A DNA stretch of 64,000 nt, taken from assembly GCA_001599975.1 (NCBI GenBank), contig BCIO01000002.1, forward strand, positions 992,001-1,056,000. The letters are read 5' to 3'. The notes below the pieces were generated by a model. That model was not told the DNA's origin. It worked only from the letters and a program-made list of their open reading frames with translations, and ran no database searches. The position numbers were made by a program, and so were the translations under genes. Source of the stretch: Cystobasidiopsis lactophilus (Eukaryota > Basidiomycota > Agaricostilbomycetes > Agaricostilbales > Chionosphaeraceae). Below, in pieces: positions 19,459 through 33,871 of this stretch. Numbering within the stretch: position 1 is the first letter of the stretch; every line of letters starts with the position of its first letter.

Positions 19459-19802
19459 TACATAGTGCTTTTGGCCACTGGTGCACTTGTCACGGGCTTG
19501 TTATAAACACATTCAAACAGAGAACAAGTGGGCACTGTACCATAGGCCACCTCGTCACCAGACTCCTCAGCGCGGCTTCGGCAATGATTGATTGTCTCCG
19601 GACCGTATCGACATCTACTCAAATTCGACACTTTCTAGGGTATTTGTCAGTCCAGAAAAGAGCTCTGCGTGCACCCAAAGAGAGCAGCAAAAGCGGTGGC
19701 CCCTCGGCAAGACTCGCGACTCCAGAGCAGAGGGAATCTGACAGCTGTCATCGGCCGCTTGACGGCTGCCCCAAGACTGCCACGATTGCTCTCCTGCACC
19801 AA
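19459..19802. other. Intergenic, promoter of Sec14-like gene
   Basis: About 340 bp between two plus-strand genes. No feature beyond the presumed 3' end and promoter was seen. Confidence 0.4.
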
Positions 19803-20875
19803 TGGACGCTGCAGGAGCATTGACCGAGGACCAAATTGCTGCTGTTGCCGCCTTCCAAAGCTCTTCGCCGGCCTTGTTTTCCAAAACTGGCTATGAAGCC
19901 CCAGCGGACGCAGCTTACCTCATATCCGACGAAACTGCGCGTGTGAGTTGTCCTTTTACCCTGAAAGACCTAGTCGTTGAGGCTGGGAAGCAGAGATTCT
20001 TGCGCTCGAGGGAGTTTGACGTACAAGAAGCTCTGGAGCTCTTTGAAGGACATTTGGAGTGGCGCCTTCAGACCAACCTGGACGAGGTTTACAAGACGTT
20101 CATCTTGAGCCAGGAGGAGAAAGCGGCGATCGAGTGCTACTGCCCGCGCTATTGGTTTGGGCACGATAGGAACCATCGACCAATTTTTGTAAGTCGTCTA
20201 CTTTCGCCGTCCCCACTTGGATACTAACGCAAGAGCAGTTTCAAAGCTATCAAGACCTGCACATCAACTTGTTCTCCAGCTTTTCAATGGAGCGCGCTCT
20301 GCTCTACTTTCCTGTCTGCGACGAGATCCTTCTGCGCACCATCTTCCCGCCCCTCTCCCTCAAAGCTGGGTCCGAAGTGTCGAGCGTGTGTTTCGTACTG
20401 GACATGAAGGACGTGTCATTGTGGCAGCTGGCGAACATGGCGCGTGTCGGATTCTCCAAGAGGCTGCTCGGCCAGGCGCAGGCGCATTACCCGGAGCTCT
20501 TGGGACGATGCATCATTGTGCGCTCATCTTCTCCTCTAAGAAGGCCCGCCTTCTCAGTTGTAGTATGCGTCGCAGATCAATGCGCCTCTATTGTTCACCT
20601 CTGCCTGGGCCCTTGTTTCCTCCATGCTCTCCGACCGGGTGTGTGCGTTTCCTACTTCATTTCATGGTGCAAGAAGCTGATGTGACATCGAGGACCTGAA
20701 GACCAAAAGCAAGATTCAAATACTGGGCTCGTCCTACGCCTCTGCGGTTTCGGAGTGGATCGCGCCGGAAGAGTGGTCCTCCGAGCTGGACGGCGGGAAG
20801 CGAGAGGTGCCTAAAAGCGACGAGACGTTCTGGTTTCCGACGCTGGCTGGGGTGGGCCTTGAGCCTTCTGCTTGA
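19803..20875 (+). CDS. Sec14-like CRAL-TRIO phosphatidylinositol-transfer protein
   Basis: Cytosolic lipid-transfer protein of the Sec14 family. Exon 1 (19803-20188) has the CRAL-TRIO N-terminal helices: RFLRSREFDVQEALELFEGH, LEWRLQTNLDEVY and CPRYWFGHDRNHRPIF. The intron 20189-20238 has a perfect TACTAAC branch site. Exon 2 has VCFVLDMKDVSLWQL, NMARVGFSKRLLGQAQAHYP and ELLGRCII. The last exons give INAPLLFTSAWALVSSMLSD (the lipid-pocket gate region of Sec14), KSKIQILGSSYASAVSEWI and a C-terminus ending LEPSA. Order and length fit the family. Ligand choice cannot be read from the sequence. Confidence 0.85.
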
Positions 20876-20924
20876 GGCTCTCCGCCCGAGTCCTGAGCTG
20901 TCTTTGACACCGTGCACCGGGCTT

Positions 20925-23340
20925 CCCACTTCGCCGGCTGCTATTTTGGGGCCAAGGGTTCGTCCCGCTACCCTCTGAGCTCTGCAATTGTGAAGCTTAA
21001 TGTGGACGACGTTTTGAACAGATCCTCGTCCGCCTTTCCGCCAGCTTGATTTCGTCACGTCTTTGGGCCACTTTCAAGGTGGCGAATGTTGGAGTGGCGA
21101 ACTGCCTTTTGGTCCTCTCCCAAATGACCATCGTGCGTTGGATACCGTCTAGATCATCCTGGTTCTCTTCTGAATTGCTTCCACGCACAGATCGGGCAAT
21201 GCTCGTGCGTGGGCTTCAGTGGTGCTCCCTCGACCCTCGACCTGCATTGTGGAGCGCTGCGAAAGGAGCAAGGTGTGTTTATCTACCCTACCAGAAGTCT
21301 GGCCTCCTTCTGACTCTTGCAAGAATATCGCACAGGTCCGGATCTTCACGTCCGAGTCGATTTCGCAGTCAATTCGCGACCCTCGCTCCGCCCCTTGGCG
21401 AGCCCTCACTTTCTGACTGGACCAGCAAATCACGGTGCGTTCCCCTCTTCGACACTCAACATCAGAAGGTATACCCTTCTGAAAAGTTTGTCGTCTTTGC
21501 ACAGTTCCAAGATCGAACTCAGGCTCGCCACCCACCCTTCAAGGCCAATTTCAACCCGAGGAGATAAAAGCTGCCTCGCCGTGCGTTTTGTCCCTGATAT
21601 TTAGAAAGCTTCTTTTCTCCCATTTCATTGGTCGAAGCGCACAGATCCAATGCTGCGCCTGCTCCCCTCACTTTGGCTGGCTGATACTGTTGGGCCAAAG
21701 GTTCGTCCAGCTACCCTTTGAGCTCTGCACTCTCTTGTGAAGCTTGTTGCGGATCTGGTTCTGAACAGAGCCTCTTCCGCTTTCCCGCCAGCTTGATTTC
21801 GTCACGTCTTTGGGCGACTTTCAGGTGGCGAATGTTGGAGTGGCGAACTGCCTTTTGGTCCTCTACCAATTGACAATCGTGCGTTCACTACCCTCTAGAG
21901 CATCTTGGTTCTCTTCAGAGTCAAAACATCGCACAGATCAGGCAATGCTCGTGCGTGGGCTTCAGTGGTGCTTCCCCGACCTTTGACCCTCGACTTGCAT
22001 TGTGGAGCGCTGCGAAAGGAGTCAGGTGCGATACTCTACACTACCAGAAGCTTAGCATCCTTCTCAGGCGTTTGATGCCATCGCACAGGTCCGGATCTTT
22101 GACACCTTGTTCAAGCTGGCCACCCTCCTTCGAGCCCTCACTTTCTGACTGGTCCAGCAAATCACGGTGCGTTCCCATCTTTGACACTCTTATTAGAAGG
22201 CATACCCTTCTCAGAAGTTCATCAACATCGCACAGTTCCAAGGATCGGACTCAGGCTCGCTCGCCCACCCTTCAAGGCCAATTTCACCCCAAGGACGGAG
22301 CAGATGCCTCATAGTGCGTTTGGTCTTTCACCATTAGAAGTCTTGCCTTTCTAAGGAACGCTGGTCCCGCACAGCTCCCACATTGCGCCTGCTCCCTTCG
22401 CCTTCGCCGGCTGCCACGTTTAGTCAAGGGTTCGTCCGCTTCCCTCCCACTTTAAGCTCTCTCTCTTGTCGAGCTTATTGCCATAGCGACGCATGCGAAC
22501 AGACCCTCGTTCCGTCTTTCCGCCAGCTTGATTTCGTCTCGTGTTTGGGCGACTCTGACGGTGGCAAATTTCGGAGTGGCCAACTGCCTTTTGGTCCTCA
22601 ACCGAATGGAATACGTGCGTTCACTGCCCTCTAGAGCATCTTGGTGCTCTTCGAAGTTAAAACATTGCACAGATCGGGCATTGCTCGTGCCTAGGCTTGG
22701 TGGTGCTCCCTCAACCTTCGACATTCGCTGGGTTTCCTAGGCTGTCAGATAGCAAGGTGCGTTGCCCTACACTATCAGAAGTCTAGCATCCTTCTCATCC
22801 CTTTTTTCCTGGACGCACAGGTCCGGATCTTTGACACCTTGTTCAAGCTGGCCACCCTCCTTCGAGCCCTCACTTTCTGACTGGTCCAGCAAATCACGGT
22901 GCGTCACATTTGTACACTGGCAGAAGGCATCTGATTCTTACACGTCGAACAATGCACAGTTTCAAGATCGGACCGAGCCTCGCCACCCACCTTTAATCCC
23001 AGCCTGGGCCCATGGGGATAGCAGCTGCCTCGTCGTGCGTATTGTCCTCGACCTTTAGAAATCGTGCTTTTCTAACCCCATTGAGTTAACCGCACAGCTC
23101 CCATGCTTGCGTTCGCTCCCTTCGCCTTCGCCGGCTGTCACTCTTGGGGCAAGAGGGTTCGTCCGCTTCCCTCCCTCCTAAAGCTCTCTCTGGTCGAGCT
23201 TACAAAGGAAGTATGCGAACAGACCCTCGTTCCGTCTTCCCGCCCGCTTAATTTCATCACCTCCTTGGGTGGCGACTTTTTCAGGTTGGCGAACTGCCCT
23301 TGCCCTTGCGCTTTGCTTTTCCCTTAGATAGCCTTCTCTA
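20925..23340 (+). repeat. Tandem array of ~735-bp units, each with five intron-like segments
   Basis: Units begin near 20934, 21677, 22411 and 23131 (periods about 743, 734 and 720 bp); the fourth is partial. Each full unit has the same five GT-AG segments. The first has a GTTCGT donor; the others mostly GTGCGT, with all acceptors ending ACAG. Unit 1: 20958-21021, 21133-21190, 21273-21335, 21435-21504, 21581-21644. Unit 2: 21701-21768, 21879-21936, 22026-22088, 22167-22235, 22314-22374. Unit 3: 22430-22502, 22615-22672, 22757-22820, 22899-22959, 23035-23097. Unit 4: 23157-23222. Lengths are 58-73 nt; the second is 58 nt in all three full units. Intervening exon-like blocks are 55-112 nt. Unit 1 is open through all five blocks in one frame, but units 2 and 3 hit stops, so coding is not supported. 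Most likely a spliced non-coding transcript or a decayed repeat gene. Confidence 0.7.
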
Positions 23341-23493
23341 GATTAACATTGTACTCCCTCATACACACTAGATGCCACACTATAAACCACATTCCCAACC
23401 CAACTTTTCTTCAGCACCATCATCCTTTGCCTCCTGGCAATTTCACGCTCCTCCTCCCCTAAAAACCTCTCTCTCCCCTCAACAACCCAAAAC

Positions 23494-24711
23494 ATGGCTC
23501 CCCGCGCTCCCGTGAACGACTCTGACCTATTCACGATCGACTCTGTCGGCTCCCAATCCACCCGGGATCGGCTCCAACGCTCTTTGGGGTCGTCCAAAAA
23601 ACTTTTAAAGTCGGAGCAAATCCTGCTCAACACTTCCTCTTCCCCCGCATTGAGGAGCAACAAGGGTCGAGTGTTGAGGGCTCAGGTTCGAACGAGGGAG
23701 AGAAGTGGGAGGGGATTGTTGGATTTAGGCAAAGGGGATCAGAGGGGGAAGGAGTTGGGGAAGGCGGTTAAAGAGGCGGGAGGGTTTGATTTGTGGTCAG
23801 CGCCGAGACAAGGGCCTGTGTTACCCAAGGTTAGTCTCTCCTTATTGCCCAGTTACAAAAGGCTTAAGGGGTTGAATAGACACTGAAGAAGCACCATCTT
23901 TTGTCCTCCGAGTTGTTGCCACCTTCGATCCCTAACCCACACCCGGGCTCATCCTACAACCCAACCCACTCAGCCCACCAAGCCCTCTTACACCAAGCCA
24001 CTTTGGAAGCCATCGCCGTCGAGGATGAAGCTGACCAATTGGCCCGCGCCAAAGAGGAGCACGAGCGAGCTAGGAAGGCGAGGGGAGCTAAGCCGGCTTG
24101 GGAAGGTGCTGAAGAAGATGTAGGCTCTGGTTCCGAAGAGGAGCAAGTGGAACCAGAGGAGGTGAGGAGGAAGAAGACGGGGAGGAAGACGGAGAAGCAA
24201 AAGCAAAGGAGGCTAGCTAACATTCGCTCAGAGGTTCGTCCCTTTCCCTTTCTTGACACTCTCACAACTTGTCTGAAGTATGGAAGACGAACAGAAAGAA
24301 GGTCAGAAACAAAGAGCCTTGGTCAAAGCTCAACGACAAGCGACGGCCGACCTACCCCTCTTGCTGCGTTCTTTCACCCACTCAAAAACCACCTCGCTCC
24401 TCGCTAAACAACGCCGGTCCAGCGCCTTCTCGCACAAACTGGCCACTGAAGGACTGACCAACTTGCGCTCGGGGAAATACAAGGTGCCCACTTTGCCCAC
24501 CTCGGTCCAATTGGAGGAGGACTTGTCGGAGGGCTTGAGGGCTTTGAAGCCGGAGGGCAGTCTGTGGAGCGCGTGGAAGAACTCGGTCATGCGCCGAGGC
24601 AAGTTGGAGGTCAGCCATGCGGGTGTTACGAAGATGAAGAGGCGCAAGGGAGAGGTCAGCGGGCGGAAGAGGAAGATGGTGGAGAGGCACGACTTTAAGA
24701 GGTTTCATTAA
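23494..24711 (+). CDS. NOP53: Ribosome biogenesis protein NOP53 (GLTSCR2/PICT1 family)
   Basis: Nucleolar factor that recruits the Mtr4/exosome machinery to pre-60S particles for 27S and 7S rRNA processing. Exon 1 opens MAPRAPVNDSDLFTIDSVG (start 23494) and ends GGFDLWSAPRQGPVLPK. Exon 2 (about 23885-24232) has PHPGSSYNPTHSAHQALLHQ, the NPGxSYNP block of the family, then a long Glu/Lys-rich coil. Exon 3 has KYKVPTLPTSVQLEEDLSEG, LRALKPEGSLW and a basic tail ending ERHDFKRFH, matching the conserved Nop53 C-terminus. Codons in exon 1 are AT-richer than in neighbours. It lies immediately downstream of the spliced-looking tandem array in the same orientation, so a long 5' leader cannot be excluded. 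Confidence 0.9.
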
Positions 24712-33789: not shown

Positions 33790-33871
33790 AAGTAAGGTGA
33801 CAGTGTAATTGCACATGGAGCACACAATCGAAGTAAGGTGACAGTGTAATTGCACATGGCGCACTCAATCG
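33790..33871. repeat. Direct repeat, two 41-bp copies
   Basis: Two head-to-tail copies (33790-33830 and 33831-33871) differing at two positions. They fill most of the 102-bp gap between the convergent deacetylase and C45 enzyme genes. Confidence 0.9.

What the first reader, a model, noticed from the sequence alone, without database searches (positions are those of the whole stretch)
20925..23340. Tandem array whose ~735-bp unit keeps five introns per copy but no reading frame
Three full units and one partial unit show the same order of five GT-AG segments (16 in total, 58-73 nt), with near-constant donors GTGCGT or GTTCGT and acceptors ending ACAG. Exon-like blocks of 55-112 nt separate them. 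Frame is lost in units 2 and 3, although unit 1 reads open across its five blocks. Splice signals therefore seem better kept than coding. This suggests a spliced non-coding RNA with internally repeated exons, or a repeat-protein gene in decay. I know of no described element of this form.
Basis: partly seen in the sequence, partly recalled or inferred. Interest (0 to 1): 0.8.

Follow-up and report, generated by a model that had tools for sequence, protein, structure and literature searches.

The report
Non-coding repeat with self-pairing introns
A fungal DNA repeat that encodes no protein we can find has kept sixteen introns, and these belong to a class seen across the genome whose two ends are complementary to each other, which could bear on how some introns arise or are recognised.

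Summary
Confirmed: 16 GT-AG introns of 58-73 nt in constant order in three full units and partial ends. No reading frame: the best free-splice ORF is no longer than in shuffles, exon differences show no codon periodicity, and no Pfam family or protein homologue was found. Yet exons are better conserved than intron interiors.

The constant splice motifs have an explanation. All 16 introns have complementary ends (80 of 80 pair cells), and so do many elsewhere in this basidiomycete genome: GTGCGT..CGCACAG 781 matches and GTTCGT..CGAACAG 655, against 96 and 45 with ends swapped. Such introns also tend to pair the branch-site region with an upstream arm, cluster in certain genes and share almost no interior sequence.

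Best reading: spliced non-coding RNA, possibly a 3' extension of the upstream CRAL-TRIO mRNA, made by tandem duplication of a segment filled with this intron class. No RNA data were at hand, so transcription is inferred. Decay of an unrecognised gene remains possible. Ten literature searches found no description of such a class in a basidiomycete.

The parts
20925..23300 (+). Array: partial unit, three full units of about 735 bp, partial unit
   Evidence: repeat families; block and intron alignments
20958..21021 (+). Intron 1 of unit 1 (GTTCG paired with TGAAC)
21133..21190 (+). Intron 2 of unit 1
21273..21335 (+). Intron 3 of unit 1 (donor GTGTGT)
21435..21504 (+). Intron 4 of unit 1
21581..21644 (+). 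Intron 5 of unit 1
21701..21768 (+). Intron 1 of unit 2
21879..21936 (+). Intron 2 of unit 2
22026..22088 (+). Intron 3 of unit 2 (donor GTGCGA)
22167..22235 (+). Intron 4 of unit 2
22314..22374 (+). Intron 5 of unit 2
22430..22502 (+). Intron 1 of unit 3 (GTTCG paired with CGAAC)
22615..22672 (+). Intron 2 of unit 3
22757..22820 (+). Intron 3 of unit 3
22899..22959 (+). Intron 4 of unit 3
23035..23097 (+). Intron 5 of unit 3
23157..23222 (+). Intron 1 of partial unit 4
22089..22166 (+). Block 3 of unit 2, identical (78 nt) to block 3 of unit 3 (22821-22898); adjoining introns only 76% and 62% identical
19802..20875 (+). Upstream CRAL-TRIO (Sec14-like) gene; its stop codon lies 82 nt before the first array donor
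   Evidence: start codon uncertain
23494..24711 (+). Downstream Nop53 gene, with one paired-end intron of its own (24234-24294)

Best explanation
The array is a spliced, non-coding stretch made by tandem duplication of a segment with five introns. Shown from sequence: 16 introns in constant order, each able to form a 5-bp helix between its own ends; no restorable reading frame; exons better conserved than intron interiors; all splice dinucleotides intact. Shown by genome-wide counts: these introns belong to a class whose ends are complementary and co-vary. Inferred: the segment is transcribed and spliced. The simplest source is read-through from the CRAL-TRIO gene, because only 82 nt lie between its stop codon and the first donor. 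Inferred: selection acts on splicing and on some exon sequence, not on a protein. Weakest step: junctions so far behind a stop codon would be expected to expose that mRNA to nonsense-mediated decay, so the array may work as a splicing-dependent switch on the gene.
For: Intact GT-AG in 16 of 16 although intron interiors are 67, 57 and 69% identical between units; a crude neutral estimate for 15 introns gives 1e-4 to 1e-7. Exons 84, 76, 79% identical, higher than interiors (P 1e-6, 5e-7, 0.004). No codon periodicity, no restorable frame, no gene called there on either strand by a simple gene finder, no Pfam family and no protein hit. Terminal helix in 16 of 16 and genome-wide co-variation of ends. 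82 nt from stop to donor. The exon-junction protein Mago is encoded.
Against: No RNA evidence. Indels and high divergence also fit decay. The neutral estimate is crude and ignores gene conversion. The block that is identical in units 2 and 3 could be a conversion tract rather than constraint. Exons show no RNA structure beyond shuffles (mean z +0.27). A separate promoter, or no transcription at all, cannot be excluded. The terminal helix of the array rests largely on inheritance: one pair changed on both sides, in the four type-1 introns, which may be one event.
Confidence: 0.5

Rival explanations
1. A tandem pseudogene: copies of an old protein-coding gene, perhaps a Sec14-like one, that are decaying; the splice signals survive for want of time.
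For: The array abuts the CRAL-TRIO gene. Under one permissive scoring scheme unit 2 and unit 3 align along that gene better than 60 shuffles (106 against a maximum of 87; 94 against 76) and rank second of 487 places each. One intron of that gene resembles array introns (score 31 against at most 24 for 298 other introns).
Against: Unit 1 shows nothing (63 against a shuffled mean of 60), and stricter schemes remove the signal for units 1 and 3 and mostly for unit 2. No frame matches CRAL-TRIO or any Pfam family at E 10. Protein alignments with the CRAL-TRIO protein stay within shuffles. Substitutions lack codon periodicity.
Confidence: 0.3
2. The paired-end introns are worn introner-like insertions whose terminal inverted repeats are merely left over; pairing has no role, and the array is a passive duplicate of such a segment. 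(This concerns the introns and can hold together with either reading of the array.)
For: Paired-end introns cluster: 9 of 22 in the gene of a seed intron, against 7 of 146 in unselected stretches (P 1.4e-5). Their ends look like short terminal inverted repeats. Fold energy of their interiors is not below that of ordinary introns (z -0.28 and -0.04 against -0.15).
Against: Interiors of 72 such introns are barely more alike than shuffles (mean score 14.4 against 13.9) while the ends still pair. No direct repeat at the flanks (2 of 30 against 2.4 expected). The branch-site stem is not explained by terminal repeats.
Confidence: 0.35
3. A non-coding host gene for snoRNAs (gas5/UHG-like) that carries them in introns or exons.
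For: Fungi have multi-intron non-coding snoRNA hosts (PMC2780460, passages).
Against: No Rfam match over cut-off in the window; the only weak match nearby is a human lncRNA model at E 2.4 on the other strand. No C box with at most one mismatch on the + strand of 20876-23493.
Confidence: 0.03
4. A protein is made from the array after all, by unusual splicing or on the other strand.
For: Two overlapping frames of unit 1 are open for most of its length.
Against: Open length and coding score are within shuffles (32 and 14 of 60 shuffles reach them) while four real genes score 58-80 against 13.1; the antisense scores 7.6.
Confidence: 0.05

Closest known systems
Fungal introner-like elements (Capnodiales; recalled, and passages of PMC9860276 and PMC8469720)
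   Same: many introns of one kind in one genome, clustered, with self-complementary structure in some
   Different: near-identical copies define introners; here interiors share almost no sequence. PMC9860276 says fungal introners lack terminal inverted repeats
Symmetrical sister stwintrons and cropped introns of Hypoxylaceae (PMC8469720, passages)
   Same: fungal U2 introns with terminal inverted repeats
   Different: those repeats are 45-55 nt in a small sequence-similar family; here 5 bp at the very ends in more than a thousand dissimilar introns
Euglenid conventional/intermediate introns (PMC4770533, passages)
   Same: GT-AG introns whose folding brings the ends together
   Different: reported for single introns and not conserved between strains; here a genome-wide co-variation
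Structured long introns of diplomonads and parabasalids (PMC6679479, passages)
   Same: base pairing draws splice sites together
   Different: there internal stems shorten longer introns, with splice motifs kept single-stranded in the predictions; here the splice motifs themselves pair in short introns
Zipper stems of Saccharomyces introns (PMC12350175, passages)
   Same: intron stems that place splicing signals
   Different: canonical splice sites there are depleted of stems
gas5/UHG-like non-coding snoRNA host genes (PMC2780460, passages)
   Same: multi-intron transcript without a long frame
   Different: no snoRNA found here; internally duplicated

Membership tests
Introner-like elements | many copies with clear sequence similarity over the intron | tested here: not met
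   72 unselected paired-end introns: mean pair score 14.4 against 13.9 shuffled, 99th percentile 25 against 23
Introner-like elements | terminal inverted repeats (in some families) | tested here: met
   5-bp complementary ends with co-variation
Introner-like elements | target-site duplication (in some families) | tested here: not met
   direct repeat of 2 or more at 2 of 30 flanks against 2.4 expected
Introner-like elements | recent insertion at species-specific positions | not testable with these tools
   no related fungal genome is held
Spliced non-coding RNA gene | transcribed and spliced | not testable with these tools
   no RNA data
Spliced non-coding RNA gene | no conserved reading frame | tested here: met
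Pseudogene of the CRAL-TRIO gene | sequence homology to the parent gene | tested here: inconclusive
   units 2 and 3 stand out under one of four scoring schemes, unit 1 under none; proteins within shuffles
Box C/D snoRNA host gene | C and D boxes at suitable spacing | tested here: not met
   no C box with at most one mismatch on the + strand; Rfam nothing over cut-off
H/ACA snoRNA host gene | two hairpins with H and ACA boxes | not tested
   only the Rfam families were searched
Stwintron | an intron nested inside a splice motif of another | not tested
   not searched for; introns of 58-73 nt leave little room (inference)

The most novel reading that the evidence does not exclude
This basidiomycete carries a large class of spliceosomal introns (about 1,800 pattern matches with perfect ends of four types) in which donor pairs with acceptor and the branch site tends to pair with an upstream arm, and selection keeps the pairing rather than the sequence; intron recognition would then work on a folded intron. 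The array would be a locus where only that splicing is kept: a non-coding RNA whose function is to be spliced.
Probability: 0.3. Interest if true: 0.88.

Novelty: new variant of a known kind. Interest (0 to 1): 0.62.

Why it matters
How introns multiply, and whether RNA folding can help to define an intron, are open questions. A compact genome with more than a thousand intron-like matches whose ends co-vary makes both testable, by compensatory mutation and by comparing related species. The array is a natural control: sixteen such introns free of coding duty, whose interiors have diverged by about a third to two fifths while every terminal pair is kept.

Tried and rejected
Coding in another frame, on the other strand or by another splice choice: not supported. 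Repeat protein: no Pfam family, no homologue (HMMER's filters drop most matches above E 0.1). Origin from the CRAL-TRIO gene: suggestive for units 2 and 3 under one scheme of four, absent for unit 1; left open. snoRNA host: no support. Exon RNA structure: none. Changed splicing RNAs: U6 has the usual ACAGAGA in two of three copies looked at and U2 the usual GTAGTA in both; U1 was not found by its Rfam model at E 1, so a changed U1 is not excluded. Alignment A2 mixed strands and was dropped; no covariance model was built. A bacterial promoter/terminator scan has no bearing on a fungus and is not used.

Results against the reading: the branch-site stem is not significant for GTGAGT introns alone (10 of 19 against 7.4) nor at 6 bp or more overall (4 against 1.5, reached by 51 of 1,000); nor clearly for the array alone (6 of 14 at 5 bp or more against 3.0, maximum of 200 swaps 6). 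In fold energy, interiors of paired-end introns look like ordinary ones. In one search the measures that count pairs or pair types changed on both sides are not above shuffles (369 of 500). In unselected stretches paired ends are only twofold above shuffles (7 of 146 against 3.5; 47 of 1,000 reach it).

My first inner-stem test used 94 introns copied partly by eye from the lists; it overstated the effect (30 of 91 at 5 bp or more against 9.5) and was replaced by complete leading parts of three lists (16 of 87 against 6.8). Intron sets other than pattern matches come from my own simple gene finder on 205,278 bases, without RNA support; 11 of 39 loci were left out, L001 (the array) and ten others because of overlap. 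Pattern counts include a few places that match on both strands. Ten literature searches listed no paper, by title and start of abstract, on co-varying intron ends in a basidiomycete; papers were seen only as listings or passages, and subscription journals are mostly not held.

Full report
WHAT IS THERE. The window lies in a 22.1-Mb genome of eight contigs. Its proteins look basidiomycete: a leucyl-tRNA synthetase model is 57-62% identical to the 120 best hits listed of 5,791, nearly all named ones basidiomycetes, with none closer; the Nop53 protein is 29-31% identical to its best, mushroom, homologues. Between an intact CRAL-TRIO gene (19802-20875) and a Nop53 gene (23494-24711), both on the + strand, lie a partial unit, three full units of about 735 bp and a partial unit.

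NO PROTEIN FOUND. Spliced exons have 9, 6 and 8 stops in the three frames; the longest open stretch, 170 codons, is reached by 58% of 1,000 dinucleotide shuffles, the sense strand being only 16.5% A. Over all splice choices the best open length is 228 codons (shuffled mean 241; 32 of 60 shuffles reach it) and the best coding score 13.1 (mean 11.7; 14 of 60); four real genes score 58-80 and three intergenic stretches 5-15. Differences between units fall evenly on the three codon positions: 23/19/22, 34/28/31, 31/26/25. Nine frames of three units match no Pfam family at E 10, and unit 1's open frame no protein at E 0.1.

SPLICING IS KEPT. Intron interiors (7 columns cut at each end) are 67, 57 and 69% identical between units, exons 84, 76 and 79%. 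A crude neutral estimate for survival of GT and AG in all 15 unit introns is 1e-4 to 1e-7. Block 3 of units 2 and 3 is identical over 78 nt, and the identity stops at the splice motifs (91 nt in all), while the adjoining introns are 76 and 62% identical. Constraint or a conversion tract could do this; I cannot tell which.

THE INTRON CLASS. Each array intron starts with a stretch complementary to that just before its final AG: GTGCG with CGCAC in types 2-5, GTTCG with CGAAC in type 1. All 80 cells (16 introns, 5 pairs) form standard pairs, six of them as G-U; no shuffle of 500 reaches this, though two other measures, counts of changed pairs and pair types, are not above shuffles. RNAalifold predicts this helix alone. 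The same pairing runs through the genome: GTGCGT..CGCACAG 781 matches (reversed-pattern control 14), GTTCGT..CGAACAG 655 (51), GTGAGT..CTCACAG 289 (7), GTTTGT..CAAACAG 86 (14), while swapped ends give 96 (35) and 45 (32). The odds ratio is 118, P about 1e-271. Gene models place such introns inside conserved domains: three of five in a Ysc84 gene, two in a leucyl-tRNA synthetase, one in an iron-sulphur protein and one in a mitochondrial carrier; in an AAA ATPase gene both lie outside the domains.

A SECOND STEM. The branch-site region of these introns tends to be complementary to an arm upstream. In complete leading parts of three lists (45 + 27 + 20 introns, 87 of 92 usable), 49 have 4 bp or more against 28.0 when upstream segments are swapped between introns, and 16 have 5 or more against 6.8; none of 1,000 swaps reaches either. 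The GTGAGT set alone is not significant. Ordinary introns show nothing (8 of 142 against 8.2). In the array, inner stems such as AGAAG/CTTCT recur across units, but the swap test on the array alone is weak, and fold energies of interiors do not separate the class from ordinary introns. I hold the terminal pairing to be firm and the second stem to be a real but modest tendency.

ORIGIN OF THE CLASS. Paired-end introns cluster: 9 of 22 others in the gene of a seed intron, 9 of 32 elsewhere in seed loci, 7 of 146 in unselected stretches, the last only twofold above shuffles (3.5). Clustering suggests insertion in bursts, as with introners. Against a simple introner, interiors of 72 are barely more alike than shuffles and flanks show no direct repeat (2 of 30 against 2.4). 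Either old insertions have kept their pairing under selection, or another process makes introns with paired ends.

MECHANISM. I take the array to be spliced non-coding RNA. Only 82 nt separate the CRAL-TRIO stop from the first donor, so the simplest transcript is an extension of that mRNA. Junctions that far behind a stop can trigger decay where exon-junction complexes act (recalled); the junction protein Mago is encoded. Splicing of the array could thus lower that mRNA. Transcription, splicing and decay are inferred. A pseudogene origin from the CRAL-TRIO gene is the main rival: units 2 and 3 align to it unusually well under one of four scoring schemes, unit 1 under none.

KNOWN KINDS. From passages only: fungal introners are said to lack terminal inverted repeats, and of eight introner-containing groups in one survey the fungal one was Pezizomycotina (PMC9860276). 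Hypoxylaceae have a small family with long imperfect repeats (PMC8469720). Euglenid intermediate introns and diplomonad introns draw ends together (PMC4770533; PMC6679479). Yeast introns are depleted of stems at canonical splice sites (PMC12350175). The ten searches named under Tried and rejected listed no account of the present class.

Noticed in passing
whole genome G000: About 1,800 pattern matches of intron length with perfectly complementary ends of four types, mostly in or near genes where looked at; the class deserves a study of its own.
   Followed up: partly
window 20518-20575: An intron of the CRAL-TRIO gene has the inner stem AGAAGG/CCTTCT seen in array introns of types 3 and 4 (score 31 with 22167-22235, against at most 24 with 298 other introns).
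   Followed up: partly
window 22082-22172 and 22814-22904: 91 identical bases in units 2 and 3 that coincide with block 3 and its splice motifs.
   Followed up: partly
window 33790-33871: Two head-to-tail copies of a 41-bp unit, 95% alike.
   Followed up: no
G000 C5:1917364 and C5:1924492; C3:809611 and C3:810827: U6 occurs as two equally scoring copies in opposite orientation 7 kb apart, and U2 as two copies in opposite orientation about 1 kb apart; U1 was not found by its Rfam model.
   Followed up: no
G000 C1:543147-545318: Eight matches to the paired-end patterns within 2.2 kb in two adjacent stretches of opposite strand, a dense cluster outside the array.
   Followed up: no
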